Below are positions 1 through 43,131 of a DNA stretch of 64,000 nucleotides, piece after piece. The notes under the pieces are model-generated. The model was given only the letters and a program-made list of their open reading frames with translations. It was not told where the DNA came from and made no database searches. This DNA is from Hansfordia pulvinata (Eukaryota > Ascomycota > Sordariomycetes > Xylariales). The translations under genes were made by a program, and so were the position numbers. Positions within the stretch are counted from its first letter, which is position 1; every line of letters begins with the position of its first letter. The DNA lies in contig BJKQ01000027.1 of NCBI GenBank assembly GCA_006538405.1, positions 1-64,000 on the forward strand, written 5' to 3'.

Positions 1-87
1 ACCCTAACCCTAACCCTAACCCTAACCCTAACCCTAACCCTAACCCCCTAACCCTAACCCTAACCCTAACCCTAACCCTAACCCTAA
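1..87. repeat. Telomere, CCCTAA repeats
   Basis: About fourteen CCCTAA units read 5' to 3' on this strand, so the G-rich TTAGGG strand runs toward the chromosome end. One unit near 44-51 is a variant with five C residues (CCCCCTAA). The array stops at about 87 and passes straight into AT-rich repeat-derived DNA with no subtelomeric helicase gene visible in between. Confidence 0.98.
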
Positions 88-5765: not shown

Positions 5766-5934
5766 AAGCGAGGCCGTATATTATAAACTTAATCTTTTAA
5801 CTTAATCTTATAATATATAACTACGGCAGCTCGTAGGCCCCGACGCCTTCCCTTCTTCTTCCTCCTTTAAGGAGAATATTACCATATCGACGCACTCACG
5901 CGGGCATTATTAATGGCCAGTTTATAACACTTAT

Positions 5935-6900
5935 ATATATATAAGAAAAAAGTTAAAGCGGATTAATAAAAAGGGTAATATATCTTTTATTTACTTTTAC
6001 GGTTAAGTAATAATAAAGGTTATACCGCGGTGTTTAAATATAAATAATAAAAAAGTTAAAGTAAATTAATAAAAGGGCGATATATCTTTTATTTACTTTT
6101 ACGGTTAAGTAAATAAAGGTCGTGTTATAATATTAATATATATATAATTAAAATATTAAGGTTATTTACTTTTAAAGTTAAATAATAATAAAGAATAAGT
6201 AATAACGCTTATATATATATAATAAAAAAGTTAAGGTAAACCGATAAAGGGGGCGATATATCCTTTATTTACTTTTATAATTAAGTAATAATAAAGGTCG
6301 TATCACGGTGTTTAAATATAAATAATAAAAAAGTTAAAACGGACCGATAAAAAAAGCAATATATCTTTTATTTACTTTTATAATTAAATAATAATAAGGG
6401 TTATATTACGGTGTTTAAATATAAATAATAAAAAAGTTAAAGTAAATTAATAAAAGGGCGATATACTTTTTATTTACTTTTATAATTAAGTAAATAAGGG
6501 TCGCGCCGCGGTGTTAATATATATATAATTAAAATATTAAAGCTATTTATTTTTAAAGTTAAGTAATAATAAAGAATAAGTAATAATACTTATATATATA
6601 TAATAAAAAAGTTAAAATAAATTAATAAAAAAGCGATATATCCTTTATTTACTTTTACGGTTAAATAATAATAAGGATCACACCGTAACGCTTATATATA
6701 TAAAGTTTAAAAGTAAAGGTAAATAAATAATAAAAAGTAATATAAGATTTACTTACTTTTATAATAAGGTAATAATATAAAATATATAATAATGCTTATA
6801 CGTATTTAATTTAAAGTTAAGGTAAATAAATAATAAAAAACGATATAAGCCTTATTTACTTTTATAATTAAGTAATAATAAGGTTAATAACACTATAATT
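5935..6900. repeat. AT-rich satellite-like array, 103/175-bp periods
   Basis: The segment AAAAAGTTAAA recurs at about 5951, 6054, 6229, 6332, 6435 and 6610, giving spacings of 103, 175, 103, 103 and 175. The longer period is a 103-base unit plus about 72 extra bases that contain a second TTATTTACTTTTA-like block. Units share TATATCTTTTATTTACTTTTA-like and GTGTTTAAATATAAATAATA-like blocks. Later copies (6700-6900) are more decayed. Confidence 0.8.
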
Positions 6901-7899
6901 ATATACTTTAAAATATAAAAAAAAGTGATATATTAAATATAATATTATATTAATTATATACGAGTAAAAGAACAGGGTTAAATAAGGGCTTAAATATAAT
7001 GCTTAATAGTTTTTAACCATTTATATAAAGAATAATAAGGGCGCCGACTTAACATTAATTATAAGATAAGGAAGGTGATATTTCTTAGCTTAAATTTAGC
7101 TGAAAATAAGTAAACGAAGTAAAAGAATAAAAGGAGAGATGATAATGGTTTAACTGGCTGGACGTTAAAAGGTGAAGGTTTATATGAGCAACCCTGACCC
7201 GATTTTAAAGAAGATAAAATTCTATTATTTTTAATATACTTTTTAATACACTTAGCCCTCGATACACTTATTTTATATGTTAAGACTTTTACGGCGCGTC
7301 TTCCTCGGGGTTTATATACGATATTTACCGTCGACGGATTTAACCCGCGTTATGTAAGATTACCGATTAATTATACTTAACCGACCTTTATCCTTTAAGG
7401 TATATTAAGCCCTTAATTATTATATTTAAAAAGGGATACATTTAAGTTAAATAATCGTATCGCAAAAACCACGCTGTTAAAGTCCTCCGTATCGCCGCTT
7501 CGTCTTTAATTTAGTTCATCCGGGCGGTCCCCGATTAAGGCCTTCTGCCGCCGCCACTTTACTATTATCAGTTTAAATGAGTTATAAGAGGCGAGGAATT
7601 AAAGTTATAAATAACGAACCCCGAGGTAGCGTAAGGGGAAGAGCTAATAATAGTAATAAGGGATTAAGCTACGCTTAATATAATTAATCGCCGATGTTTA
7701 AGTAGCCGTGTACCTGATTAAATTTCTCGACCACCGAAAGTTAAAAATAAAACGAATACCTTAGCCGAAATAAAACATCTCAGATTTTTCATCTTTATAA
7801 GTGAGCTTAACCATCTCGTCTTTATATTATTGTTATACAATTTTTTAAAGACGGGTATACAGCCTCGAACATTCCACCGATACGAGTTCCGTTGTCAAA
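6901..7899. other. AT-rich transition zone, no gene seen
   Basis: AT-rich sequence that passes from the satellite array into less strongly RIP-like DNA. Dense stops in all frames. The last 200 bases precede the secreted-protein gene at 7900 and presumably hold its promoter, but no specific element is recognisable. Confidence 0.5.
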
Positions 7900-11702: not shown

Positions 11703-12923
11703 CTAGTAAAACCTCCTCGCCATCTCCACCAAAGCCATAATGGCCATGGCCTGCCCATATGGCATCGCTGTGAGCGGAATGTCTTTGTAGAACTGCAAAT
11801 CAGCGCCCATACCCGTGCCGAAGCTGACTTGCCGCAGCTCGCCCTCGGGCGAGACATTGTCCAACACGGCCCGGATCGCTGCCAGCGCCACGTCGTCGAG
11901 CGACTTGCCGCCACTGCCGCCGTCGCCTCCCACCGAGTCTCCCACGCGCGCAGGCAAGAAGCGCCTTCGCCGCGCCTTGAGGATTCCGTATGCGAAGCCC
12001 GCCGTGGCCGAAGCCTCCGGGTAGGAGCCCTCCTCCGCGGGGACATCGAGGAGGGTGCGCCAGAGGCCCGAGGAAGGCTCCTGCAACCCGGCCAGCGCGC
12101 GGGCCTGTGCCCCTAGCGTGTTGACCAGGTGGCCGCGGATGGCGTTCATGCCAAGGCCGTGGCCCGAGCCCGTCTCGGCGTCGTCCTCGTCGAGCAGCTC
12201 GAGCATCTCGGGGATGACAATGGTGAGCCAGCTGTTGCCGCGCGCCCAGCGGGCGTTGGCAAAGTTATGACCCGCCTCGAGCGGGTTGCCCTCGGGCGTG
12301 AACTGCCACCCATGGAAGAAGAGGCCCGTGCGGTTGTCGAACAGGTACTGTATAAGAACGAACATCTGCCGTAGCGCCTCCTCGATGTAATGTCGGCGCT
12401 TTAAAACGCGGCCGATACGGGCTAAGGGCAGCGCCGTCATCATAAGCGTGTCGTCCCATAGCTGCTGGCGGTTCTCCTTCACGTAAGTGATATGCTGCAT
12501 GCCGCCGTACTCGGTGCGCGGGAGCCCCTTATAGGCCCACTCGGCCCAGGCGTCGAGCCAGGGCAGGTAGGTCGGGTTGCGCGTGCGCTCATAGACGTGG
12601 GCGAGGGTCAGGAAGACGGAGATGGTGTTGATGTTCTTCTCGGTGCCGGCGTTCGGGCCAGTCAGATGGGCCGCGAACCAGTCCTCGATCAAGGCCAGGT
12701 GCTCGGGCTTGCCGGTCAGCTCGTAGTACTGCCAGATCCCGTACAGGCCCACGCCGTGCGTCCAGTCCCAGCCGTCCCAGCTCTTAGTGTCGATGATGCG
12801 ACCGTCGGGGAGGTGATAGAGAAACTGCTTGCTCTCGTCTTTGAGCCCGGTCAGCTGCGTGATGAGCGTCTCGATGGTCTCGTGGACCTGCGTGGCCGTG
12901 ATGCCCTCGCCGGAAGATGCCAT
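11703..12923 (-). CDS. GH105 unsaturated rhamnogalacturonyl hydrolase
   Basis: Intronless 406-residue protein of the GH88/GH105 (YteR/YesR) fold. It hydrolyses the unsaturated galacturonyl residue from pectin-lyase products. Visible motifs: SWDGWDWTHGVGLYGIWQYY near residues 53-72, the WDDTLMM segment near 156-162 that carries the family's catalytic aspartate, FFHGW near 203-207, and the ARGNSW and SYPEASATAGFAYG signatures near 228 and 310. There is no signal peptide, so it should act in the cytosol on imported oligosaccharides. Length is close to the family norm. It is transcribed divergently from a Dal5-type transporter 888 bases away, suggesting uptake and cleavage are co-regulated. Confidence 0.92.
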   Translation of the reverse strand: MASSGEGITATQVHETIETLITQLTGLKDESKQFLYHLPDGRIIDTKSWDGWDWTHGVGLYGIWQYYELTGKPEHLALIEDWFAAHLTGPNAGTEKNINTISVFLTLAHVYERTRNPTYLPWLDAWAEWAYKGLPRTEYGGMQHITYVKENRQQLWDDTLMMTALPLARIGRVLKRRHYIEEALRQMFVLIQYLFDNRTGLFFHGWQFTPEGNPLEAGHNFANARWARGNSWLTIVIPEMLELLDEDDAETGSGHGLGMNAIRGHLVNTLGAQARALAGLQEPSSGLWRTLLDVPAEEGSYPEASATAGFAYGILKARRRRFLPARVGDSVGGDGGSGGKSLDDVALAAIRAVLDNVSPEGELRQVSFGTGMGADLQFYKDIPLTAMPYGQAMAIMALVEMARRFY

Positions 12924-13075
12924 GTCGCGGATGCAGGGAGGCTTGGCTTGGTCTGGTCTTGGTGGGAAGTATTGTTGGCTCCAGTCTACCTAACCTTCAG
13001 CTGGGGCTCGGGCTTTGGAACCCAGACTCACCTCCTTGTTAAATAAGGTATCGAGGATGGACGAATGGTCGATTG

Positions 13076-24844: not shown

Positions 24845-26623
24845 TCAACGCTGCCCGTCAGACTCCAGTCCGGGCGCAGCACGGGGGTGAATCCACTTGT
24901 CAGCGCCGTCTGTCCTTGTGAAGACAACCTTCAAGTTCTTCGGCATCAGCGGCCCTGCCTACATTAGATCTGGTTAGCACTAGTTCATTTGCGAAGTCTG
25001 ACGCCGTTTCTCGATTTGTGGCACTCCTGCCTAACCCTGCGACGTACCGGTGTCATTTTCCTCTCCCACGTGGGATGCAGTCTCCATCGCCCTGAAGTCA
25101 GCAGCACGGACATGGTGAGTCTATGCGCCGCCAACGCCCACTTCTGGCCCAGGCACGCTCGTTTGCCCCCGTGGAAAGTGATGAGGGCGGCCTTGCTGGT
25201 GGCGCGACGGTACAGAGCCGTCGCTTCCTCCAACGTGCTCCCCCAACGTTCCGGCGCGAACTCGTCGGCATCAGGTCCCCAGAACTCTCGGTTCCGATTC
25301 GTGCAGTACCCGTTGTACCCCGTGAATGTCCCCGGCTGCAGAGCGATCTCGCCGAGGACTGCATCCGCCTGTGTGCGCTTGTTCATGATTTGCGACAGAG
25401 GAGGATACAGTCGAAGAGTCTCGAACATGGTTGCCGTCAGGAGAGGTAGACCAGACAGTTTGTCAGCATCGCGACGATCTTGGTACGATAGACCCATCAG
25501 CTCCTCTCGCAAGCGCTGCTGCAACTCTGTGTTCTCGCAGATTACCAACAAGCTTGACAGCAGCAAGCATTGGGGGTTCTCGTGTCCTGCGATGAAAGTA
25601 ATCACACAGTTCTGTCTGAATTGCTCTCTGGTGCTATCGCATACGTCAGCCTGAATGCCAACACGGTGTGCCCCCTGCGGTCGTCATGGAGTCTGTTCAA
25701 GCCTCGCCTCCCTGTACTCACAGCAGTCCCTCACGATACGCAGCGACCAGTCTGCAACCCAGATTTGGCGCATCGCTTGTGCAGTGACCGGGCTCGTGCC
25801 CCTGCAGCAAAAGGTCCGCGAGGTCTTCGTTGAAGGCCAAGACGGCCCGTTTAGCTTCTGCACGACCTGGAAGGTTTAACCGATCCAGCATTGGGAAGTT
25901 GAGGTGGAACGGGTTGAAAATTTTGGGCTTGATTGTCCTCTGGAGCTGAAGAATACAAGCGTCGGGGTTTCCTAGAGCCTGCATGTGTGATAAACTGTCA
26001 GAGAGGTTCTCAACACGTGTAGGTACTGCCCGCGTTACCTCTATTTCGAAGCCAAGGAGCGATTCCGTGACATTGTTGATAGCAAAAGCTTGGACGTGGT
26101 CCTGCATTGCAACGCCTCCGGTTTGGCTTTGGTCTCGGGAAACAAGGTCGATCAGCCTCTCGGCGTTTTTTAGTATGGGGCCTGGGTCGACAGCAGACTG
26201 CAGCCCTGGCTTCATTACCGCCGCAAAGAGCTTCCACTTGTCGTCGACAGAGCTGATGATGTTCTCGCCCGTGTAGAGAGCCAAGACGGAGTTGGGATTC
26301 TTGACATGGTTCCCGGCTTTCGGGAATGTCTGGTCCTGCTTGAGGATGTGCGCCATGTACGACGGGGCCGTGACCAAGACATTCCAGTGCCCACCGAAAA
26401 AGATGTTGACGGCGCCCGATTTGGCAAGTGGCTCTTTCAGATATCGGTGGTATAAGTCCTCTTGGTCGACGTGTAGGAACAATGGGAGCAGAGTGTAATA
26501 GAAAGGTATCGTCGGGATGTTACTGGGATGCCAGACTGGTGGCAGCAGCCGTGCCCTTACGACAGCCCAGAGTCTGCCAACCAGAAGTACCCCTATCAGC
26601 AGGGCAAGTATGAATTGAAGCAT
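24845..26623 (-). CDS. Cytochrome P450 of the isocyanide cluster
   Basis: Exons 25722-26623, 25048-25615 and 24845-24958, 527 residues. A membrane anchor covers residues 1-20 (MLQFILALLIGVLLVGRLWA). The I-helix is FIAGHEN, split from exon 1 by the first intron; ETLR is the ExxR pair; FAPERW follows; the heme loop is FHGGKRACLG. The second intron (GTACGT donor, TAG acceptor, 89 bases) is needed to reach a normal P450 C-terminus (AGPLMPKNLKVVF); reading through it gives an abnormal basic tail. Divergent from the isocyanide synthase-dioxygenase gene over a shared 945-base promoter, so it likely oxidises or couples the isocyanide product, as Dit2 and xanthocillin-type P450s act downstream of their synthases. 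The exact reaction is unknown. Confidence 0.88.
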
Positions 26624-27568
26624 GACGGCTCTGAGAAGGAGGCGGGAGGGGGTTTCCTAGTGCCGCGCGGGAGCCGATTCAAGCGCAAGACGGGCTGTGG
26701 TGAAAGCCAGGTAGACCGGACAGACTGGCAGCACGACCACATAAAACCGCACGCAGAAGCGGCTGCGCAAGACCTGCGACTCGAAGAGCAAGGAGTACGG
26801 GATCCAGGCAGCGAGTCCGAGTCTGCGATGCCATGCCCATCAGGCCGCAACAAAGGCCGGCGACCCGGTGCGCGCTCCAGGTCGGCTGCCATGATCCGAC
26901 GGGGAGCCGGCACAGTGCGAGGACGACGCGTCCCCCAGCCAAGGTACAAGGCTGCCAAGCCAAGTCGGGTGTGCCGTGTGAGGCGGAACCGAGCGCCATA
27001 AGCGTCTCGGCATGCACGACGGCTTCATTCATCTCAATAGGTGCCAGGCAAGATCAGCTGGGGATTCGGGAAGACACTTGCGTCCCCAGGCTGAGGCAGC
27101 AGCCGGCCTCATGCTTGTACGTGTCCGGTGGCGTCGAATCAGTGAGCAAGTTTGAGGGGATTGGAGCGGGCACACCCTCTACATCCGCTGTACTTGAGGA
27201 AGCGCGCTCACTTGCCGCAAGGGCTTGGCATAGAACCGGCGAAGAATAGGACTGCTATCACGGAGGGGGAGAAATGACTCAATTGCTCTCACTGCGGGAG
27301 TGGGGGGATGAGAAGAGGGGGGGTGGCACACGAATGGGCCTTTTGGCACGGCCACGAAAGGTGTGTCTGACGGAACCAGAGGGCTGAACGTCGCCAGGGG
27401 CCCGATGAGGGTATTGATATAGGTTCCGGGGGTCTCGAAGGCCGCTGCAGAGATCCGGTGCAATGGCTCAGACCTCATACTTGCCCACGGAGAGACGACG
27501 ACGACGAGGACCGTCCGTGGCCGCGTCATTCCAAGTGTCTGTTAACCAGCTCGACCCTGTCTTGCGCC
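26624..27568. promoter_or_regulatory. Bidirectional promoter, P450 / isocyanide synthase
   Basis: 945 bases between divergent starts. Long pyrimidine-rich tracts on the minus strand near 27290-27330 look like leader or core-promoter sequence. A TGAGCAAG near 27142-27149 resembles the reverse of the TTTGCTCA copper-regulon (Mac1-type) element with one mismatch. Several minus-strand frames (26679-27032, 27179-27529) look accidental. Confidence 0.4.
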
Positions 27569-29637
27569 ATGTCCGCAGAGACTGTCGCCTTCCTTCCAGC
27601 CCAGGCGCCGGGCCTGCTTCCATCAAGCGAGCTGCCAGCCCCGACGCACTCCGACGGGAACGTCGATCCTTTGGCTGGGGCCCATCCCGCATCGCGTCCC
27701 CCAGCCGGACCATGGAGCACGCCTGGCGATGGACAGTCCCTCGGAGCACAGCCCCACAAGCTGACCGCTGTCGCGATTCTCAACAAGATCGCCAGCTACT
27801 CCACGTGGGCTGGGGACTCGGGGGGGGCTGCCGGTGCTGTCCAAGCCTTTCTTCCGGCCGTGTCCCGGGCCGTCGCCAGCGGTGCGCCGGTGCGCATGCT
27901 GCTGCCCGGCTTCCCCTTCAAGGACGGCTCTGGCACGACGACCCTCGGTGTCTTGCCGGATCTGGGCGAGGAGCTGGCGCTGGCCCATCTGCAGGGGCTC
28001 TGCGATAGCGTCTCGTCCGTCTACGCCGGCGGTGCTGAAGTGCTCATATGCTCGGACGGCTTGGTGTACAATGGTCGGTAACCTCGTCCGCCCTGCCGCC
28101 ACAACTCTGCGCTGCGAGGACTGTTGCTGACCTGCTCGGACGCGCCAGACCTGCTCGGCGTCTCCCAGGCGCAGGTTTGGGAGTATGGCGAAGGCGTGAG
28201 AGGCATTGCGGCTTCCAAGCAGCATCGTGGTCTCGGGTTCGTCCGTCTCCGCGATGTTCTCGAGTTTGACCTGGATGCGGTGCACTGGGCTACCGACCCT
28301 AAGGCTTCGTACATTGAACATGCCGCCTCGATAAGGGACACTCTGCTCGAACGGTTCGGCCACGAACCAACGGACGCCGACGACAACCATCCTAAGCCGG
28401 ACGTGAACGCATCCAGGCGTCTCGACACCTTCTCTCAGGTCCTGGGCGAGGCGCAACACAGCGATCAGGCCCGGACGGCCAGCCGCATGCAAGAGCGCGC
28501 TCGTGCATACGGGCGCGCTCTCTCTGCAGCCTATCCCGACCATGTTCGCCTCAGCATTCACGACTCGGACAACAGTGACCGGTTTTCCGTCTCGCTACTT
28601 CCCTCTCCAGGAGACCGCCGTACTGTAGGGATGATGCCGTGGCGATGCGCCGTTGCCGTGGGCGTCGACGGGTCCTATGGCGCGGTGCTGCCCCACGGTT
28701 TGCACGGGGACTACGAGGTCATCCACCATCACCAGACTCGACGCCCGTACTTCCTCCGGGCCCGGTCGCCGATGTTCGACTGGGCAGCCTCCGGTCTCGA
28801 TGTCCACTTCGAGCACCTGTACCCCTGTGGTGTCATTATCCGTCCGTCGGGGTCATCTGCGCCCATCTCCCTCCGTCAGGTCCCCATGGACAAAGTCCGG
28901 CATCTGTCCAACAGCCTCTCGCCGGTCGTCTTACGCGGCTTCGAGGAGACGACGGATGAGGACCTGTGGGTCGAGAAGGGCCACGAACTCGGCGAGATCC
29001 TGAGCTGGGCCCTGACAGGCACCATCTTCAAGGTACTGGACACCGGCGACACGGACAAGATGGCCAACAACGTCACCTCCAACGAGCCGCTCCCCATGCA
29101 TTTCGACGGGATCTTCAAGTTCAAGGAAGAGACCGACCCTGACACGGGCGCGGTGAAGAAGACGCTCAACCCCCCGGGTACCAGTACTTCACGTGCTTGC
29201 ACACCGCGCCTCCCGGGGACGGCTTCACTCTGTTCTCCAACTCGAGACTCTTCTTCGAGCACCTCCCACCACCGTGGACGCTTGAGATGCTGGAGCCCAT
29301 CACGTGGGAGATGGCCAACGACGGGTTCTGGACGAACAAGCACACGGGCCTGCCGCTGGTCGTGCGCCACCCCGCGACCGGCAGGCCCTGCGTCCGATGG
29401 CACTCGCCCTGGGACGGGGAGAAGACCAAGTACTCGACGTACCGGATCACCATCGAGAACGGGGACCAGGCCATCGTGCCGCTGGTCGAGGCGCTGACGT
29501 ACGACTACCGGGTCTGCCTGCGCTTTTCCTGGGAGGTCGGCGACGTGCTGGTGAGCGACAACGTGGCCATGCTGCACACCCGCACGGGCTACGCCAGTGC
29601 ATGCAAGCGGGAGATGTGGCGCATCCACCTGGACTGA
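27569..29637 (+). CDS. Isocyanide synthase-TauD dioxygenase fusion (frameshifted)
   Basis: Exon 1 27569-28073, intron 28074-28148 (CTGAC branch, CCAG acceptor), exon 2 28149-29637; about 664 residues if the frame is continuous. The N-terminal half is a DIT1/PvcA isocyanide synthase: LLPGFPFKDG, LPDLGEELALAHL, ICSDGLVYN at the intron, VWEYGE and HVRLSIHDS. The C-terminal half is a TauD/PvcB-type Fe(II)/2-oxoglutarate dioxygenase with HFD (iron ligands) near 29100, NDGFWTNKHTGLPLVVRHP, LTYDYRVCLRFSWEVGD and AMLHTRTGY with the distal histidine. PvcA enzymes turn an amino acid (tyrosine or tryptophan) plus ribulose-5-phosphate into an isocyanide; PvcB-type partners desaturate it. A one-base shift occurs in the C run at 29170-29175 (six C; seven would keep frame), inside the dioxygenase domain between conserved segments. 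Confidence 0.88.
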
Positions 29638-30065
29638 AGCTGTCAGCCCTATAGCAATGGGGCTTTTCGTAACCCCTGCTGCGGAATTTGATCCCCCATC
29701 TTTTTACCACGCTCGCTAGTTAGACTCGTAAACAGAAAGCCTCATCCCCCATCTTTTGATCCACAATGCAGAGTTGTTTCAGGTGCCATGCGCGTTAGTC
29801 ATTGATCACCAATCACAGGGTACACTCGCGATGATCACCTTGGTACTGGGTATAGGCACGGGACGGGGGTGGTGTAAGTGCAGCGACGCCAAGGCCGCTG
29901 ACAGCCCAGAGTGACAGCGAAAGACAAGCAGTTGGATTGTACAATACAGACGAGACTAAGTAACAAGGAAGAGAAAGAGCGGCTGTCATCTATGAGTAAG
30001 TAAGTAAGCACCTAGGTATCCGAATCTGAGCCCACCACGTGGGCATCCCCCATCACGGCTTGGCC
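29638..30065. other. Intergenic between convergent synthase genes
   Basis: 428 bases holding the 3' ends of two convergent isocyanide synthase genes. No ORF. Short ATGAGTAAGTAAGTAAG repeat near 29992. Confidence 0.5.
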
Positions 30066-31985
30066 TCACAGCTTGGCCCGTGGCGTACCGGTCACGTCCC
30101 AAACAATGCCCAACACCACCGTCGAAAATGTGGCCCGGGCCAACACGAAGAGTCCATTCACGAGGTTCGTCCACCTGGTGAGGATCACCGCCCAGGACAC
30201 GGCCACATCGGGCGAGGTGACAGCGGGATCGGCGACAGGGACGGCGGCGGTGAGATTGCGCGACGAATCGCATCCATCGCCCCCGCGGCCGCAGCGGCTG
30301 AGTGCAAAGTGGCCGCCCCCCGGGGCGCCGCCGTCAGTCCAGCCGCCGGCGTACTCGCCAGAGGCTACCGCATCCTGTGCGACGCTGGCGCGCGCCAAGT
30401 ACAGCACGTCATCCCCGGCCACGTGGAGAACACTGTTGTGCCAGGGCGTGGGCACCTGGAAGTCCAACGGGGCTGAGGATGCCGAGACGTGCGGCCCCGC
30501 GTCGTCGAGGCTGCGGATGGCGCGCACGCGGGCCGCTGGCAGCAGGCGGATGCCAAACTTGGGGCCGGCGTTGTTGTGCCCGTGGATGGACAGGCGGATG
30601 CAGTCGGGGAACAGCAGCTCGATGTAGTTGGCGAACGCCTGGTTGCGCGCCATCATCTCCTCCGCCGTCGCCTGCGCCACCTTCTTCCTCTTCGAAGTCG
30701 ACCAGGGCTTCTCGCCGCTCTGCTTGTCGCCGCGAGGCAGGCCACCTTGCAGGTCGTCCAGTATGAAGCGCGACAAGCCGCGGTAGGTTTGCAGGGCTCT
30801 GGGATCCTGTGCCTCGAGCAAGCCGCGTAGTTGCTTGCGGTCGATGCCGCTGGCGGCTTCCAAGATGCCACGGGCGAGGGCGGGTCCGTGGCTCTCGCCT
30901 GCCGCCATGGCCTGGGAGGGCTTCTTCTGTCTCGAAAGACATGTTTGCTTGCTTTTCTCGCCTTCGAGGTTGGGCACAAGATCGGTGAGGGTGCGAAACC
31001 TCACCTCGGCGAGCCCGTCGGCTGGCAAGGCATGGGATTCTTGCACCACTTTGTTTATCGCTTGCAAGTTCGATTCGTACTCGGAAACCTGGTCGTCGTC
31101 GACGCCAACTAGTGTGGAAAAAGACGTTAGTATTTGTTTTGTGGATCACTTTTTCCTTCCCCTTTTGACACTTCAAGAAGTCTGTTGTTCGCATTGACGC
31201 CCGTATCTTACACGCCATGTTTCATACGTACCGCAACTGGCCAGAACATGGCCATCGTGAATGATGGAAACAATAGCACCGGGCCTGTACATCTTCTGCA
31301 GGCTGCGTACGAAGGCGTGCAGCTGCTCGATGGCAATGCGCTCGCCTAGATCGGGTTTGACGCCTCCCACTTTGAGCTGGTTGGGCGATTTGCACGGGAA
31401 AGCCGGCAGAATGAAATGGCACGGCTCGCCCCGGTGCAAAAAGTCCAAAACACGTCGATGGAAGTATGCTCGACCAGAAATTCCCCACTGGTCATCTCTC
31501 GGTGTACTGAGGAGCATGCGTTCAAACACATCCACGATGCCGTCTGCGATCGGATGGCAGGTTTTGGTCGGGGTCAAAGATGGAGGTGGGTTGACGATGT
31601 GACGCGGTCGTAAGGTTGTCTGTGAGAGAAGAAAGGACTCCATCAAATCTCGAAACTCTCTGTCTCCGGAAAGGTCTGATCTGCCTGAGATCAGACCGAC
31701 GCAGCATCTATCAGAGTCTTGATATAGTTCGCGAGCGTGTAGAGTAGAGGTTTCAGCACGGAAAAATGGGCCCGCTTCAGGATTCATGATGCTTGACATA
31801 TCGATCACTTGCGGAGGCCGCAGCGTGTTCTGGTCGGGGTGACAGGTCGAAAGTTGAGTCCATATCTGTGGCCATGCGGCTGTGATGGCTTCGGCCTCCC
31901 GGCCCTCAACGGCGAGGAGTGTGCCGTCATGATCGCGGCAATAGAAGCCAAGGGTGGAGTGGTACAGCGAGGAACCGGTATTCAT
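30066..31985 (-). CDS. Stand-alone isocyanide synthase (DIT1/PvcA family)
   Basis: Exons 31232-31985 and 30066-31108 (donor GTACGT, acceptor ACTAG, 123-base intron), 598 residues. After about 130 residues of N-terminal extension comes the synthase domain: CHFILPAFPCKSPN, VGGVKPDLGERIAIEQLHAF, HDGHVL interrupted by the intron at the same place as in the fusion gene, GVDDDQVSEYE, YIELLFPDCIRLSIHGHNNAGPKF and TPWHNSVLHVAGD. There is no dioxygenase domain. The last roughly 90 residues are unusual: glycine-rich and then hydrophobic (FVLARATFSTVVLGIVW), possibly a membrane tail. Convergent to the fusion gene and divergent from an exporter. In yeast the homologue Dit1 acts with a P450 and the Dtr1 exporter. 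Confidence 0.88.
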
Positions 31986-33529
31986 GGTTGATTCGGAAAA
32001 GCCCCTATGAAAGAGATATGCAGATGGTAATGCCCAGGACCGCTAGCAGATCCCACGGAAAAGAGGTAATCAAGATTGAGCCCTTTATCAAAGCTACTAG
32101 GCGAGGAACAGTGAGAACCACCGAGGCCAGAATACACTTTGCCATCACAATTAATGCTGAAAAGGCTCAAGTTGCTATATATACAATGGTATCTATGTCC
32201 AGGGCCGGCAAGCCAATAGGCAGAGAAACAGGTCAGCACAGAACGGAATAGACACTGAACAGCATGGAAAGCCCAAAAGTCCTTGCCCAGATACACACCT
32301 ACACATCGCAGGTTCATACCGGTAAACCCTGAGGCCCGCGCCCCGCACCCTGCATCCACTCCTCCACGCACGCCCTTGCACTGGCTTCCGCGTGGGCAGA
32401 AACCCAAGCCGGGCTTGATCCTGCCTTGGGCGAACCACCAAGAGGGGGTCCTCGTAGGAACGACGAAGCCGACGCGCCCCAGCGGCGGTGGTCAGACTCA
32501 GCTAGCTAGCTGAAGTGCGACAAAGGACCGTTGAGGCGAAGCAGGGGGCGGGATCTTTCGAAGAGGACGGGAGGTGAGGAGGGGTGGGGGGGAGGGGGGG
32601 CAGGCTGCGGCATGGCCGTGTTCTTGCACGATCGTGAGCCCGAGGTGACAGAGGCTACCCCCTCCTTTGCGTGGAATTGCAGCCTCAGCTGCTGGCTGCC
32701 AAGACCCGTCATGGGGGCTTCGGAGGTGCGACGAGGCAGACAAGGCAGCTGGATCCACGGCACGATGACCGGTGTACATGCGAGATACATCGGATGAGAA
32801 TAAAAAAAAACATTGCCGTCGAAAAGGGGGGAAGCTTTTCCATCATCCCCATGCCACGTGAGCATGTTTGCTCTCGTTTCTGCAGACAGTGCGAGAGAGC
32901 GGGCCAATTCGAGGTGGTAGCCGCCGGCCTTTGGCCCAGTCCCGGCCGACGCCGGAGTCAATGCGCCCACCCGGACGCCGCGTCCTCAGAGGGCGACGCA
33001 AATAGATCCTGACTGCGCTCGGTGCTGGAGCCACTGCTGTCGGCCTGCCTCGTGTGCTAAGCAGTCGGTCCCGTATCTAACATGAACCTTTCGAATATGT
33101 CTCCGTGGGTAGCACTAGCAGGCAAGCACGGCTGCTACCTAGAGGTGTCCATATGTTACATCCACTAGGTGGTAAGGTTAGGTAGGTGTGTACACGCAGT
33201 AGAGAGGAGCCCGGGCAGCATCCGTGGCAGGCACGCGTCGATGCCCCCCGTCGCCTCCTTCCTGTCAATCCCCAAGCGGTGTTAAATATTTCCTTCTCTT
33301 GTCTGGCCAAGATCCGGTTTCCTGGGCCATCTCCCTGTTCATCTGCCTGACCCATCTTCGGGAGCAACACAACTCGACCACCAAACAGTTGTCTACCCGC
33401 TTGGTGTCACCCAATCGCCTTCACCTGCCACAGCCGCACAAGACCAAGCCAGATCTTGTCCAAGCTCGGCCTGCGCGGCTCCAGCTTTGCCGCGTCGCAG
33501 CTTTTACTCCTCTTCCCAATTGCCTGAGT
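31986..33529. promoter_or_regulatory. Bidirectional promoter, isocyanide synthase / exporter
   Basis: 1.54 kb between divergent starts. Contains a G-rich run near 32578-32600 and the dyad listed separately. A long pyrimidine-rich leader precedes the exporter ATG (33240-33530). No convincing gene. Confidence 0.45.
32860..32873. promoter_or_regulatory. GAGCA-N4-TGCTC dyad, copper-element-like
   Basis: Perfect 5-base inverted repeat with a 4-base spacer; the right half reads TTTGCTC, 7 of 8 bases of the Mac1-type TTTGCTCA copper element, and the left half GAGCATG is similar on the other strand. Known fungal isocyanide clusters can be copper-starvation controlled, so the site is worth testing; the identification is tentative. 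Confidence 0.3.
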
Positions 33530-35199
33530 ATGACTCCAGAGGAGAACATGACCGAGAAGGCACCCGCGCTGGAATCGCCAGGCTCCCGGTCCTCGACCAC
33601 GAGCGCACAAGCCAAATCCCCTGATGTTTCCGTGGCAGATGTTGGGAGCGGCTCGGTCGCCTCCGGCACTTCTGCTGGCGCCGGGCCTCGCGACGTCGAG
33701 CCAGGCCCACCGGCGCCGGAAACCCCTGCACCGTACACGGCATATCCGGCATCCCGTCAAATGTTCATTGTCCTCATCGTCACATGCGCCGGCTTCTTCG
33801 CACCCCTCTGCGGCGCCGTGTACCTCCCCAGTCTGCTCCTGTTCCAGGGCGTGTTCCAGACGTCGGCCGATGTCATCAACGCCACTGTGAGCGTCTACAT
33901 GGCTGTCTTCGCTGTGACGCCGCTGTTTGGGGCTGCCGCCAGCGACTACGGAGGCCGAAAGTCCGTCTACATCGGCACGCTGGCCCTGTTCCTCGTTGCC
34001 AACACCCTCCTGGCCGCGGTCCCGGCCAACATTGGCGCGCTCTTCGTGCTGCGCATCTTCCAAGCCCTGGGCGCGTCCGTCGTCACCTCGGTCGGCGCCG
34101 GCACCATCGCAGACATCACGGAGCCCGCCAAGCGAGCCTCGAGGATGGGCATATTCCTGCTGGGGCCCCATCTGGGCCCGGTACTCGGCCCGTTGATCGG
34201 CGGACAATTCTCAACGCCCAATCGCTGGAGGTGGATCTTTGGCTTTTTGTGTGAGTAAACACGCATTCATTTGCTATGCTTTGCCAATTTTCCGTCTTTT
34301 CTTCCAAGTCCAGCACCCATCCACTCCTCGATATCCTGAAAAGACGAGACACTGACTTTGTTTTGCACGCAGCAATCGCCTGTTTCCCGGTCTTCTTGCT
34401 CGTCGTCTTCTTCCTGCCGGAAACCCTGCGGTGCCGTGTTGGTAACGGGAGCGCCTTTGCGAGCGGATCGTGGATGGTGAAGCCCAAATTGCGACAGAAA
34501 CAGCTCGTGCCCGAGGGTGTGTATCCGAAGCCGCCTCGACCGACCCCCAAGAGGCTGTACCGGCTGCTTCTCTTCGTTCCGAACCTGATCGTCAGCGTTG
34601 GGTCCGCAATCCAGTTCTCGGGGCTCTACTGCGTGTACATTACTTTTCCCAGGGTCTGGCAGAAGCTGTACGGGTGGACTGGCAGCCAGACCGGCTATGC
34701 GTACCTCGCCCCGGCCGTCTTCCTGCTGGCCTCGTCGCTGGCAGTGGGTAAGCTATCGGACCTGCAGTACCGGCGCCTGAAGGCCCAGCATCCCGAGGGT
34801 AAGGCCCCGGCCCCGGAGAGGCGAATCGACATCCAGATCTGGGGTTATCTCACCGCGGCCGCCGGCAAAGCCATGTACGGCTGGTTTGTGTTCTATCACT
34901 TCCACCCTGCAGCGGGCTTGGCGGCGAGCGCCGTGGCCGCCGTCGGTACTGGCCTCGTCATGGTCACGAGCACGGCGTACCAAACCGAGTGCCAGCCCAC
35001 CGCAGCCGCCATGCTCGTGGCGCTGTCCGGGCTGCTGCGGAACCTGGGTTCCGCTATATCGGCCGCCATCATCGACCAGCTTTTGAGTGCCATGGGGCTG
35101 GGGTGGTGTTTTACCGGCCTGGCACTACTTGATGCGCTGTACAGCGGCGCTATTATCTTCCTGCGCATCAAGGGTCACCGGTTCCGACAAAAGACGTAG
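33530..35199 (+). CDS. MFS exporter, Dtr1/Qdr3-like (DHA1 family)
   Basis: Exons 33530-34250 and 34373-35199 (donor GTGAGT, CTGAC branch, GCAG acceptor), 515 residues. A hydrophilic Ser/Pro-rich N-terminus of about 75 residues is followed by twelve membrane segments. The drug:H+ antiporter motif A reads GAAASDYGGRKSVY in loop 2-3, motif C-like GIFLLGPHLGPVLGPLIGG in TM5, and RWRWIFGFL follows; FFLPETLRCRVGNGS after TM6 is typical of the Dtr1/Qdr3 branch. Yeast Dtr1 exports the dityrosine precursor made by Dit1 and Dit2. Its place next to a DIT1-type synthase points to export of the cluster product. Start chosen as the first ATG with the family-like leader; a second ATG lies seven codons downstream. 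Confidence 0.9.
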
Positions 35200-36074
35200 G
35201 GGCTTTTCAGGGCATCGCGGACGCGGAAAAAAAATCTCGAATGAGGAAATACTCCCAATAGACGGGAATCCCCTTGGAGTGTGGCTTCGACGCGTGGCTA
35301 GGCTAGACTAGGTACCTAAATAATAGAACATTCCATCTCATGCCATCCGCACAACGCACATATCAAAACCTGCATGCATTCATCCTGTGCCCCTGCCCCT
35401 GATCGAAGCTTCTACAGGGACAAATTTCAGCCAATATCTTCGCCCAGCGCCCGGATTGCTGACAGTTTGTTTCGTGTTGAGAGCAGCTCTCCACTTGGGC
35501 GGTAAGCTTCGCCTGCCGGTTTATCGGTGCCTCGATTGCCTAGTGGACGGATCGTGGGACAACGCGCCGCCCCCCGCGCAGGCCACCAACGGGAGCGACC
35601 GAGCTGCGCTGAGCCAATGGAGGGAGTTCGGCAGCCACCGAAACAGTGATCTTGGTTGCCACAAGGAAGCGCCGAGCCGCCCCAGGGCGGGCCATATGTT
35701 TCAAATGGACTTTCTTTGTTCCCCTGGCCTGGCCGCAAGAGGCCGGTCCCATGCACATGATGTGAGTGCACGACCCCTGCGCTGACAGGAGGTGCTTCCT
35801 TTCCAAGGGATCGCTAGCAGAGGCCTGGCTGCGAGTGGAGGACGATGGAAACAAAGCAATGCAAGCCCCCGGGTGGTAGGGCGCGGATGCGACTATGGGC
35901 ACGTCCTGGCCGGCGTACTTAATCTCCATCCATGGGCTCTTCTTTGTCTTCTCGGGTGTATTTCCGATGGTCCAGGGTTGTTGCCGACGCTCATTCATTC
36001 CTTCGTTCATTCGTTCATTCGACAATTATCTATTCGCTGGTCGCTTCTATCAACATTAATCTGCACCCGTCAAG
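35200..36074. other. Intergenic region
   Basis: 875 bases between two genes in the same direction. The last 80 bases contain a TTCATTC(G) repeat (about five units, 35990-36020), which lies in the likely leader of the DJ-1 gene. No gene recognised. Confidence 0.5.
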
Positions 36075-37033
36075 ATGCTGGCGTTGCGAGTTCTGCCCTC
36101 TCTTCTGGTTTCCGTCGCGGCGCTTTCCCTGCGAAGCCCTGGAGGCGCAAGCGGAGGCGGCACGGGGCTCCTGGGACGGGCCCGTGACCACGACGCCGCG
36201 GAAAGCCCGGCGAGGAGGAGGTCCGAGGATGGGACGGCGGCGGCGGCGGCGGCGGCGGCGGGCGAGGCGAAGGGTCCGCTGAACTTCGGGGTGGTGCTGT
36301 TCCCGGGCTTCGTCATCTCGGACGTCGTGTCCGTGACGGACCCCCTGCAGCTGCTGGCCAGCACGGTGCCGGGCATGAACCTGTACGTGCTGGCGGAGAC
36401 GATGGACCCCGTCAGCACCGACCCGCAGTCGGGCGCCGCCGCCGGCCCGGCCTCCTCGTTCTACCCCAGCATGAACCCGACGCACACCTTCGACGCCCCG
36501 CCGGCCGGGATCCAGGCCCTGGTCGTCCCCGGCGGGCCGGGCGTGCGCGGCAACGGCACCGCGGCGGCCGCCAGCTACCTGGCCAGGGCGTTCCCGGACC
36601 TGGACTACCTCATCACCGTCTGCACGGGCAGCGGGCTCGCCGCCAAGGCGGGCGTCCTGGACGGCCGCCGCGCCACGACCAACAAGCACGCCTGGGAGAC
36701 GATGACCAAGCTGGGGCCCAAGACCACGTGGGTCAGCCCCGCGCGCTGGGTGGTCGACGGCAACGTCTGGTCTTCTTCCGGGGTAAGTCTCGAGCGAAAC
36801 GCGCGCCCGCGCACCCATCTCCTTGCCGTGTCACGTCTCCCCCGTCTGGAATCTAGGTATGCTAACATGGCGCTTTGCAGGTCACGGCGGGGATCGATTT
36901 GGCGTTCAGCTTCATTCAGCAGTTCTGGGGCGCCGAGGCGGCGGAGCGCATCGGCGGGCTCATGGAGTACGAGCCGCACCCTGCGACGTACGACCCCTTT
37001 GCGGAGCAGTTCAAGGTGAAGCCGACGGGCTGA
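36075..37033 (+). CDS. DJ-1/PfpI protein, isonitrile-hydratase-like, secreted
   Basis: Exons 36075-36782 and 36881-37033 (GTAAGT donor, GCTAAC branch, GCAG acceptor), 286 residues. The N-terminus is a signal peptide (MLALRVLPSLLVSVAALSL), followed by a low-complexity segment with an alanine run near residues 55-61. The catalytic fold has VVLFPGFVISDVVSVTDPLQ with an acidic residue where family members have one, VVPGGPG, the nucleophile elbow YLITVCTGSGLAAKAG with CTGS, HAWETM and SSSGVTAGIDLAF across the intron. The CTGS elbow and SSGVTAGID are shared with isonitrile hydratase (InhA type), a DJ-1 superfamily enzyme converting isonitriles to formamides. Next to an isocyanide cluster this suggests product turnover or self-protection, apparently outside the cytosol. 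The function is inferred, not shown. Confidence 0.82.
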
Positions 37034-41757: not shown

Positions 41758-42669
41758 TCAGTGCGTGATCTTGAGCTTGAAGAAGTGGACCTCGGCAGTC
41801 TCGGTGGTGTCGGTGTCCTGGTTGTAGTTGCCGGCCTTGAAGAAGGCCTTCTTGGTTGTGAAGTAGGTCTTCATCGTCCGGAAGGGGTCCTGGTTGAGCC
41901 TGGCGAGCAGCTTGCCGCCCTCGAAGCGCACCTCGTAGGTGAACCGGGTGCCCGGAGCCACCGAGCCGATGGGCTGGAGGTCCTGCCCTCCGCCGCCCTC
42001 GGCGGCCTGGGCGGTGCCGAGCTTGACCGTGCCGTCCGCCCCGTAGTACAGCTCGGCGAAGGGCTTGTTGTGGCCGTTGCTCGACTGGAACACCTGGCCG
42101 ATGCACACGTTGTGCACGTTGAGGGCCTTGAGGTCCGCGACCAGCCGGTTGGTCCCGGCGTCCGGGCTCCAGGGCTCCTGCTCGCCGAACTCGGTCCTGC
42201 AGTGCTCGCTGCCGGACGTCTTGAGGCAGTGCGTCTTGTCAGGGCTGCCAGGCGCCTTCATCACCATGGCCCCGCTCTGGGCGTCGGTGTAGAAGTATTT
42301 GCGGCCCGCGTCCTCGTAGCCTCCGCAGCCCGAGAGCTTCGACGAGGAGACGGAGTCCGGCGAGTCCTGGCCGATCGGGAGCTGGAGCTGCCAAGCAGAG
42401 AGGTCGAAGTTGCCCCCCGGAGCGCATTTTGGGTTCAGCGCCGAGGGAGGGCCTGCCGAGGGTGCGGGCGAGCCGGCTGACGCTCCGGAGCTCGACGGTG
42501 TAGGGTACTCGACCGGTGCCGCGGAGCTTGTTGGCGTGGCATAGCCTTTGGAGGAGGAGGAGCTGGTGTGTGTAGGGGAGTGATGCGATGTAGAGTATCC
42601 CTGGCGCGGCATGGCATAAGCTACCGCGCAGGCAAAGGGGGCGCTGACGAGGAGAATCGAAGTCTTCAT
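41758..42669 (-). CDS. Secreted PL7-type alginate lyase family protein
   Basis: Intronless, 303 residues. Signal peptide residues 1-19 (MKTSILLVSAPFACAVAYA), then a Ser/Thr/Pro linker to about residue 78, then the Alginate_lyase2 jelly-roll: NFDLSAWQLQLPIG, HCRTEFGEQ (position of the RxE catalytic strand), VCIGQVFQSS, FAELYYGADG, FTYEVRFEGGKL and the C-terminal KAGNYNQD with the catalytic tyrosine. Family lyases cleave uronate polymers by beta-elimination. The QIH motif, whose histidine takes part in catalysis in many PL7 enzymes, reads QVF here, so activity or specificity may be altered. Fungal substrates are probably plant, algal or bacterial glucuronans rather than alginate as such. Confidence 0.87.
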   Translation of the reverse strand: MKTSILLVSAPFACAVAYAMPRQGYSTSHHSPTHTSSSSSKGYATPTSSAAPVEYPTPSSSGASAGSPAPSAGPPSALNPKCAPGGNFDLSAWQLQLPIGQDSPDSVSSSKLSGCGGYEDAGRKYFYTDAQSGAMVMKAPGSPDKTHCLKTSGSEHCRTEFGEQEPWSPDAGTNRLVADLKALNVHNVCIGQVFQSSNGHNKPFAELYYGADGTVKLGTAQAAEGGGGQDLQPIGSVAPGTRFTYEVRFEGGKLLARLNQDPFRTMKTYFTTKKAFFKAGNYNQDTDTTETAEVHFFKLKITH

Positions 42670-43131
42670 TGTTATCGGTGCTGATTGGTCCCGTTACTGG
42701 GTGGAAGATGTGTGTGGTGGTTGTGCTGGGGAATCACACAGTCAGCCTTTCCAAGCAGGACATCTCGCCCTCTTATCACGCTGGAGGTTGGGGCGGATCG
42801 CAGCCCGCAAAGCAGAAGATCGAGTTTTCTACTGGTGAGAGTCGGCAGACCACTGGCTGGAGGCTGGACGGTAGTTGCACGGAGCCTCGGGCCGTCTTTG
42901 ACGCCTACGAGCTCAACATTCCATGGCGAGCCAAAGAACACAAGCGATGGATGAGAGCTGAAGACATTTCTCGTACTGATTGTTAGCCGCGGCGCTGTAG
43001 ATCGCAGCTAGTCCTTTGCCAGCGGGATGGAGGGAGATCTGTGCCTGCGTCCCTCTAGCGGATCATGGGCCACGAGCTTCTTTCTACATTCAGACAAGAC
43101 TACGGCAGTCGCACGAACCTTGCCGACAGCG

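What the first reader, a model, noticed from the sequence alone, without database searches (positions are those of the whole stretch)
24845..37033. Subtelomeric isocyanide biosynthetic cluster with two synthases of different architecture
Five adjacent genes form two divergent pairs plus one: P450 / PvcA-TauD fusion, and DIT1-type synthase / Dtr1-like exporter, then a DJ-1/PfpI protein. Seen: family motifs in each gene. Known: DIT1/PvcA enzymes make isocyanides, PvcB-type dioxygenases desaturate them, and yeast uses Dit1, a P450 and Dtr1 together. Inference: two synthases in one cluster could make two isocyano precursors that are joined (a P450-coupled dimer or mixed product) or act in series. 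I know of no described fungal cluster with exactly this set.
Basis: partly seen in the sequence, partly recalled or inferred. Interest (0 to 1): 0.88.

Follow-up and report, generated by a model that had tools for sequence, protein, structure and literature searches.

The report
Two-synthase fungal isocyanide gene cluster
Near one chromosome end, this fungus carries a small gene set that mixes parts of two known tyrosine-based pathways (spore-wall dityrosine and the antibiotic xanthocillin), and the core of the mixture recurs in Xylaria-type fungi, so it may make an undescribed isocyanide, although one of its two synthase genes is interrupted in this assembly.

Summary
The ICS-TauD is not one frame here: its dioxygenase half changes frame at a C6 run (29170-29175) where relatives read straight through. 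Both sides look well conserved, so the break is recent or an assembly error. The core set is no chance neighbourhood: of the 23 closest DIT1 relatives (22 mostly Xylariales, plus Lindgomyces), 20 have an ICS-TauD and 18 a P450 on a contig of equal length; of the other 97 listed DIT1 rows, none has the ICS-TauD. DIT1 and the P450 are dit1/dit2 (dityrosine) family members in a Dothideomycete-like branch; the ICS-TauD belongs to the XanB side. One such P450 serves two synthases. Dioxygenase residues predict a vinyl isonitrile. Two-synthase clusters as such are known (A. fumigatus icsA/icsB). Verdict: a real, conserved, composite dit/xan-like cluster; a mixed dimer is plausible but unproven.

The parts
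1..87 (.). telomere repeat (ACCCTA)n: the window begins at a chromosome end
   Evidence: Tandem repeat finder, 14.2 copies, 95% matches
24845..26623 (-). cytochrome P450, Dit2/CYP56-like; exons 24845-24958, 25048-25633, 25722-26623; 533 aa
   Evidence: Model; Pfam p450 2e-36; 15 of the 18 best hits named 'Dit2 protein', those 18 at 55-60% identity; 92 of 95 near-invariant columns kept
26624..27568 (.). shared intergenic (promoter) region of the divergent P450 / ICS-TauD pair
   Evidence: From gene models; no XanC site AGTCAGCA here
27569..29179 (+). ICS-TauD gene, first frame: isocyanide synthase domain plus N-terminal part of the dioxygenase; exons 27569-28073 and 28149 to the frame break (the open frame itself runs on to a stop at 29497)
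   Evidence: Pfam DIT1_PvcA 3.2e-59; PvcA 3e59 5.2e-21; 61 of 64 near-invariant columns kept, HxD iron ligands present; stop
29170..29175 (+). CCCCCC run at which the reading frame of the ICS-TauD gene changes
   Evidence: relatives read ...PPG-YQYF... (or a near variant) without gap
29173..29637 (+). ICS-TauD gene, second frame: C-terminal 154 residues of the dioxygenase and the stop
   Evidence: Pfam TauD 1.1e-21; 69-76% identity in the 12 best rows; 23 of 23 near-invariant columns kept; GC at third positions 0.929
30066..31985 (-). DIT1-type isocyanide synthase (monodomain); exons 30066-31108, 31232-31985; 598 aa
   Evidence: Pfam DIT1_PvcA 3.8e-69; 22 best hits 40-44% identity; trees
31986..33529 (.). 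shared intergenic region of the divergent DIT1 / MFS pair
   Evidence: From gene models
33530..35199 (+). MFS transporter (drug-efflux type), putative exporter; exons 33530-34250, 34373-35199; 515 aa
   Evidence: Pfam MFS_1 1.2e-37; NCBIfam TIGR00880 'multidrug resistance protein' 5.7e-29, below its curated cut-off
36075..37033 (+). DJ-1/PfpI protein resembling isonitrile hydratase; exons 36075-36782, 36881-37033; 286 aa
   Evidence: Pfam DJ-1_PfpI 2.5e-11; isonitrile hydratase InhA 6ni4 4.2e-16 with the VCTGS motif aligned; best match overall is 3mgk, a ThiJ-family protein, 3.4e-29

Best explanation
A composite isocyanide cluster: a dit1/dit2-derived unit (DIT1 synthase, Dit2-type P450, MFS exporter) joined with a XanB-type ICS-TauD and an isonitrile-hydratase-like enzyme. 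Most likely working: the ICS-TauD turns an aromatic amino acid (tyrosine by analogy) into an isonitrile and then, by decarboxylating desaturation, into a vinyl isonitrile; DIT1 makes the carboxylate-bearing isocyano- or N-formyl-tyrosine; the single Dit2-type P450 couples such units oxidatively into a homo- or mixed dimer; the hydratase turns isonitrile into formamide; the MFS protein exports the product. Shown: gene identities, conserved linkage of the three-gene core, family placement, conserved residues. Inferred: substrate, order of steps, coupling, hydration, export. In this assembly the ICS-TauD gene is interrupted, so the full pathway may not run in this strain.
For: Linkage: of the 23 closest DIT1 hits, 20 match a listed ICS-TauD and 18 a listed P450 in contig length, 15 both, each at least one; of the other 97 listed DIT1 rows 0 match an ICS-TauD and 13 a P450. 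About 0.34 ICS-TauD matches are expected by chance for the 23, with 45 Mb genomes assumed. Locus tags for DIT1/P450/ICS-TauD: O1611 g338/g340/g341, ANO14919 099890/099910/099920, E0Z10 g8894/g8892/g8890. One P450 of this type in the genome (next hit 33% identity, E 9e-13) and three PF05141 loci in all, two of them here. Dioxygenase: iron ligands and arginine present, K at the PIsnB K107 position and H at the N188 position, both vinyl-isonitrile type (rule from passages of PMC9467999). Both synthases keep most of their relatives' near-invariant columns (64 of 71; 61 of 64). Isonitrile-hydratase resemblance.
Against: Frame break in the ICS-TauD. Linkage of the MFS and DJ-1 genes in relatives was not testable (protein searches spent). 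The DJ-1 gene has two paralogues elsewhere in this genome, best pieces 52 and 48%. No shared XanC or copper motif in the promoters. No expression or chemistry. Contig-length matching is a proxy, weak for contigs above 1 Mb (7 of the 23). Three of the 23 DIT1 relatives show no ICS-TauD among the 120 listed rows (of 184 found), five no P450 (120 of 209); clustering at 90% identity may hide some. 2 of 17 Xylariaceae ICS-TauD rows have D, not K, at the K107 position.
Confidence: 0.5

Rival explanations
1. Two pathways in one place: DIT1 + P450 + MFS make a dityrosine-type spore-wall precursor, as proposed for the Coccidioides DIT1/DIT2/DTR1 cluster, while the ICS-TauD with the same P450 and the hydratase makes a xanthocillin-like defence compound. 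The cluster is shared machinery, not one product.
For: DIT1, P450 and MFS match the gene kinds of the Coccidioides spore cluster (passages of PMC12077801); Nickles et al. note an MFS gene in dit clan 3 and Onygenales clusters; no other dit-type synthase was found in the genome; Pyrenochaeta and Westerdykella carry a P450 of this clade on an ICS-TauD contig with no DIT1 row listed there, so that pair can stand alone.
Against: DIT1 and ICS-TauD stay together in 20 of the 23 closest relatives and in 0 of the other 97 listed DIT1 rows, which fits a joint role in this branch better than two independent pathways.
Confidence: 0.25
2. The ICS-TauD gene is a pseudogene in this strain and the locus is decaying to a dit-type cluster.
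For: Frame change at a C6 run; the first frame then ends at 29497; two relatives list a synthase without a Pfam TauD domain (P0138, 414 aa; P0181, 571 aa), and three of the 23 lack a listed ICS-TauD.
Against: The part after the break is the better conserved one (69-76% identity in the 12 best rows, 23 of 23 near-invariant columns, third-position GC 0.929), so no decay is visible; a homopolymer error in the assembly explains it as well. Short gene models in relatives may be annotation errors.
Confidence: 0.2
3. Serial action: DIT1 supplies isocyano- or N-formyl-tyrosine and the dioxygenase domain desaturates it, the synthase domain of the fusion being a back-up.
For: PIsnB, PvcB and PIsnB-Ah accept the N-formyl analogue of their substrate (passages of PMC9467999).
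Against: The fusion's own synthase domain keeps 61 of 64 near-invariant columns (first piece as a whole), so it does not look redundant.
Confidence: 0.12
4. Chance neighbours at a fast-changing chromosome end.
For: Subtelomeric position; gene order differs from relatives: here the ICS-TauD lies between P450 and DIT1, while the locus-tag numbers of O1611, ANO14919 and E0Z10 put the P450 between DIT1 and ICS-TauD.
Against: Conserved linkage in Xylariaceae and Lindgomyces despite reordering.
Confidence: 0.03

Closest known systems
Aspergillus fumigatus ICS4G cluster (icsA one-domain ICS + icsB ICS-dioxygenase)
   Same: Two synthases of the same two architectures in one cluster (PMC5974471)
   Different: I did not obtain the icsA/icsB sequences, so kinship was not tested; the paper saw no expression of them under its conditions
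xan cluster (XanB ICS-dioxygenase, XanG P450, XanA isocyanide hydratase)
   Same: ICS-TauD on the XanB side of the tree, a P450 and an isonitrile-hydratase-like gene
   Different: Extra DIT1 synthase and MFS transporter; P450 groups with Dit2-named proteins, many on DIT1 contigs; no XanC site in the promoters; no methyltransferase among the five genes
dit superfamily (dit1 + dit2, clans 1-3)
   Same: DIT1 on the dit side and P450 in the Dit2-like family, both nearest (outside their own clade) to a Dothideomycete pair, Rhizodiscina P0041/P0269, on one contig
   Different: An ICS-TauD lies between P450 and DIT1, and these two are both on the minus strand
Coccidioides DIT1/DIT2/DTR1 spore cluster
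   Same: DIT1, Dit2 P450 and MFS exporter together (passages of PMC12077801)
   Different: The passages seen name no ICS-TauD and no hydratase among its six genes; DTR1 orthology of the window's MFS was not tested

Membership tests
dit superfamily | Synthase in the dit clade, apart from other fungal ICSs | tested here: met
   Deep split with DIT1 on the dit side; Xylariaceae+window clade 100/99 inside it
dit superfamily | Co-localised P450 in the Dit2 clade | tested here: met
   P450 inside a set of Dit2-like proteins, many on DIT1 contigs; Zygosaccharomyces DIT2 as outgroup
dit superfamily | Synthase and P450 genes in the orientation of yeast dit1/dit2 | tested here: inconclusive
   Both on the minus strand with a gene between; the yeast orientation is recalled as divergent and Figure 5a of PMC10153163 was not readable
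xan cluster family | XanB-type ICS-TauD backbone in one protein | tested here: inconclusive
   On the XanB side, sister to Pleosporales, then Aspergillus xanB (quick tree, long window branch); but split over two frames in this assembly
xan cluster family | XanC regulation (A. fumigatus site AGTCAGCA in promoters) | tested here: not met
   One match in the window, inside the P450 gene (25096); 1.47 expected by chance. The site is also missing from many Penicillium xan promoters
xan cluster family | P450 orthologous to XanG | tested here: inconclusive
   A. fumigatus XanG not identified among the 120 listed hits; rows named xanG such as P0277 and P0282 share contig lengths with DIT1 hits
Isonitrile-forming Fe/2OG dioxygenase, vinyl (PIsnB) type | K/R at position 107 and N/H at position 188 (PIsnB numbering) | tested here: met
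   K492 of the first piece aligns with K107; H77 of the second piece with N188; among 105 relatives K/R in 99 and H in 99
Isonitrile hydratase (InhA) | DJ-1/PfpI family with cysteine nucleophile in VCTGS | tested here: met
   6ni4 4.2e-16, motif aligned
Isonitrile hydratase (InhA) | Catalytic acid (Asp17, recalled) | tested here: inconclusive
   The N-terminal part does not align with InhA
Isonitrile hydratase (InhA) | Hydrates isonitriles | not testable with these tools
   Needs an enzyme assay
Dtr1 bisformyl-dityrosine exporter | Orthology to yeast Dtr1 | not tested
   Only MFS family membership shown

The most novel reading that the evidence does not exclude
A hybrid dit/xan pathway in which one Dit2-type P450 cross-couples a vinyl isonitrile from the ICS-TauD with the carboxylated isocyano- or formyl-tyrosine from DIT1, giving a mixed dimer of a kind I know no report of; the set arose from a Dothideomycete-type dit1/dit2 pair that captured a XanB-type gene and reached the Xylariaceae by horizontal transfer.
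Probability: 0.25. Interest if true: 0.75.

Novelty: new variant of a known kind. Interest (0 to 1): 0.55.

Why it matters
Dityrosine (dit) and xanthocillin (xan) synthesis are described as related but separate fungal uses of the same enzyme families. A conserved cluster that holds a synthase from each side with a single shared P450 links them, gives a direct test of whether Dit2-type P450s can couple isonitriles, and points to an untested isocyanide in Xylaria-type fungi, which a genome survey ranks among genera with high unexplored potential (PMC11433233, passages). It also offers a clear case for how such clusters are assembled, since its dit genes do not group with those of other Sordariomycetes.

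Tried and rejected
Copper regulation: TTTGCTC occurs 3 times in the window against 9.07 expected, once in the DIT1/MFS intergenic region (32867, beside a GAGCA half-palindrome); TGTGCTCA twice, outside the cluster; neither supports the idea (both motifs recalled, not read). XanC site: only inside the P450 gene (site read in PMC8406171).

An intron at the frame break: rejected, because relatives align without a gap across it.

DIT1 as the ordinary Sordariomycete dit1: rejected by AU test (p 9.8e-6); the same for the P450 against three Sordariomycete Dit2 rows (p 3.05e-4). These groups were named after a first tree had been seen, so the p values are indicative. One row of the 'other Sordariomycetes' group, P0059, is named Xylariaceae sp. 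FL0662B; it sits with Hypoxylon.

A DIT1-DJ-1 fusion as proof of a functional link: two DIT1 proteins carry a C-terminal DJ-1-like part (P0110, P0119), but neither keeps the cysteine of VCTGS, and Pfam sees the domain only in P0110; weak support only.

One search used a part of the lists (38 of 120 DIT1, 30 of 120 ICS-TauD and 41 of 120 P450 rows, some chosen after a match was seen). One search repeated the count with all 120 rows of each list and gave the same figures for P0001-P0023; the lists themselves are the best 120 of 177, 184 and 209 hits.
Full report
What is there. Five genes at 24845-37033 were modelled with introns of 75-123 bases and identified with Pfam: a P450 (533 aa, minus), an isocyanide synthase-dioxygenase gene (plus), a monodomain DIT1-type synthase (598 aa, minus), an MFS transporter (515 aa, plus) and a DJ-1/PfpI protein (286 aa, plus). 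The window starts with a telomere (1-87), followed by AT-rich sequence (2 kb windows of 26.5-40.4% GC up to 10 kb); the cluster lies in windows of 55.7-63.4% GC. Of nine flanking open frames scanned, seven have a Pfam match: GH88 hydrolase and MFS on the telomere side; ATG22-like, alginate lyase, short-chain dehydrogenase, dihydroxy-acid dehydratase and a second MFS on the other. None clearly belongs to the pathway, but introns were not modelled there. The genome (46.8 Mb, 63 contigs) has a third PF05141 locus on contig C19.

The frame break. The ICS-TauD gene is read in one frame through the synthase domain and the HxD iron-binding motif of the dioxygenase to about 29179, and in another frame for the last 154 residues. 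The change sits at a CCCCCC run, 29170-29175. The nine relatives printed at this point, eight ICS-TauD proteins of Xylariaceae and Pleosporales and A. fumigatus P0177, run through it without a gap, so an intron does not explain it. The second piece is better conserved than the first (69-76% against 49-55% identity in the 12 best rows of each), keeps 23 of 23 near-invariant columns and has third-position GC of 0.929 in its own frame. Either the assembly is wrong there or the gene broke very recently. The pieces were searched apart throughout.

Is it a real cluster? The database search gives contig lengths, so proteins of one organism on contigs of equal length can be taken as linked. With 45 Mb genomes assumed, 0.34 ICS-TauD matches would be expected for the 23. 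Contigs as short as 38.9, 57.5, 69.6 and 83.1 kb are among them; seven exceed 1 Mb and prove little on their own. Locus tags place the genes close together in four genomes: O1611 g338 (DIT1), g340 (P450), g341 (ICS-TauD); ANO14919 099890, 099910, 099920 (steps of ten assumed to be one gene); E0Z10 g8894, g8892, g8890; GQX73 g6311 and g6309 (DIT1, ICS-TauD). In the first three the P450 lies between the synthases, whereas in the window the ICS-TauD lies between P450 and DIT1: the set is kept while the order changes. Missing partners in some relatives may be real or hidden by the 120-row lists and by clustering at 90% identity. Whether the MFS and DJ-1 genes travel with the set could not be tested.

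Where the parts come from. In a quick tree of 96 synthases the two window proteins fall on opposite sides of the deepest split: DIT1 on the dit side, ICS-TauD in a Xylariaceae clade (100) next to Pleosporales including Lindgomyces, then a group with Aspergillus xanB. The tool warned of long branches (C19, both window rows) and of an odd letter make-up of the window ICS-TauD row. In a careful tree of 56 dit-side proteins, window plus Xylariaceae form a clade (100/99) joined by Lindgomyces (100/98) and Rhizodiscina (99/93), apart from the dit1 of 13 other Sordariomycete rows, Hypoxylon and Daldinia included; forcing them together is rejected (AU p 9.8e-6). The P450 repeats this: window and Xylariaceae (100/99), plus six Pleosporales-type rows (together 100/100), two of these six on ICS-TauD contigs with no DIT1 listed, then Rhizodiscina (91/91), whose P450 and DIT1 share a contig; grouping with three Sordariomycete Dit2 rows is rejected (AU p 3.05e-4). 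A third P450 on an ICS-TauD contig, Zopfia P0333, lies outside this clade, on a 5.8 Mb contig. So a dit1/dit2 pair of Dothideomycete type seems to have joined with a XanB-type gene. Horizontal transfer and old duplication with loss both fit. The window rows have long branches, and deeper P450 nodes are weak (51/31 and 55/72).

How it probably works. Lim et al. 2018 (PMC5974471; Results parts 1-2, the model section and passages read) propose that XanB makes a putative isocyanide intermediate from tyrosine in two steps, that XanG, a Dit2 homologue, may dimerise it, and that XanA, an isocyanide hydratase homologue, gives N-formyl products; in yeast Dit1 makes N-formyl-tyrosine and Dit2 dimerises it. 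Here the dioxygenase keeps its two histidines, the aspartate and an arginine. Passages of PMC9467999 give a selectivity rule: K or R at position 107 and N or H at 188 (PIsnB numbering) mark vinyl-isonitrile formers, L and C mark isocyanoacrylate formers. The window has K (aligned) and H (aligned). Of 105 relatives, 99 have K or R and 99 have H at these positions; 2 of 17 Xylariaceae rows have D at the first. Both synthases look competent: DIT1 departs from 7 of 71 near-invariant columns, the ICS-TauD first piece from 3 of 64; both match PvcA 3e59. The P450 departs from 3 of 95 and has no close paralogue in the genome (next 33% identity), so it is the only obvious coupling enzyme for both synthases. 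The DJ-1 protein matches isonitrile hydratase InhA over its C-terminal half with the VCTGS motif, but its best structural-database match is another ThiJ-family protein, and it has two paralogues in the genome (best pieces 52 and 48%); its role is the least certain. That the two synthases' products meet at the P450 is inference.

What is known. Two synthases in one cluster are not new: A. fumigatus ICS4G holds icsA and icsB, of the same two architectures, and GCF 1 of Nickles et al. 2023 (PMC10153163, preprint version; sections 18, 20, 21, 23, 24, 31 and passages read) holds two synthases. That paper finds isocyanide hydratases in 21.1% of ICS clusters and MFS genes in about 60%, and an MFS gene in dit clan 3 and Onygenales. 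A Coccidioides DIT1/DIT2/DTR1 spore cluster is described in PMC12077801 (passages). A cluster joining a dit-side synthase, a Dit2-type P450 and a XanB-type ICS-TauD was not found in the text I read. Full-text searches, of which I saw listings and starts of abstracts and in some cases passages, gave none either by title or abstract: Xylaria+isocyanide 12 papers; isocyanide+dityrosine+DIT1+filamentous fungi one; isonitrile+Xylariales none; isocyanide synthase+Nemania one (passages); xanthocillin+Xylari 19; isocyanide+dit1+TauD two (passages). The library holds open-licence papers only, and the authors' cluster website and supplements were not available, so the set may be listed there.

Verdict. 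I rate it a new variant of a known kind, interest 0.55.

Noticed in passing
G000 contig C19:208565-209538 (L016 8566-9539): A third isocyanide synthase, PF05141 in three exon pieces, on the XanB side of the tree but very divergent (34-35% identity to its best listed relatives); none of the 19 listed TauD matches of this genome lies on C19. Nearby frames look like a HET protein and a flavin monooxygenase by eye.
   Followed up: partly
P0004, P0132, P0265 (O1611 proteins, named Lasiodiplodia mahajangana): All three group with Nemania sp. FL0031 inside the Xylariaceae rows, although the genus name belongs to a Dothideomycete family (recalled): the genome is probably mislabelled.
   Followed up: partly
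P0106 (Collariella sp.): A DIT1-type protein continuous with a Ctr copper transporter domain (PF04145, 6.6e-33): either a true fusion or two neighbouring genes merged in annotation; in both cases a copper transporter next to a dit synthase.
   Followed up: partly
P0110 (Magnusiomyces paraingens) and P0119 (unnamed source): DIT1 proteins with a C-terminal DJ-1-like part that lacks the catalytic cysteine.
   Followed up: partly
window 5931-6920: AT-rich tandem repeats of about 102-103 bases on the telomere side, reaching into a 2 kb window of 26.5% GC; it looks like mutated subtelomeric repeat DNA, which was not tested.
   Followed up: no
window 11703-12989 and 41758-42693: A GH88 hydrolase and an alginate-lyase-type gene flank the cluster at a distance, hinting at uronic-acid polysaccharide breakdown.
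   Followed up: partly
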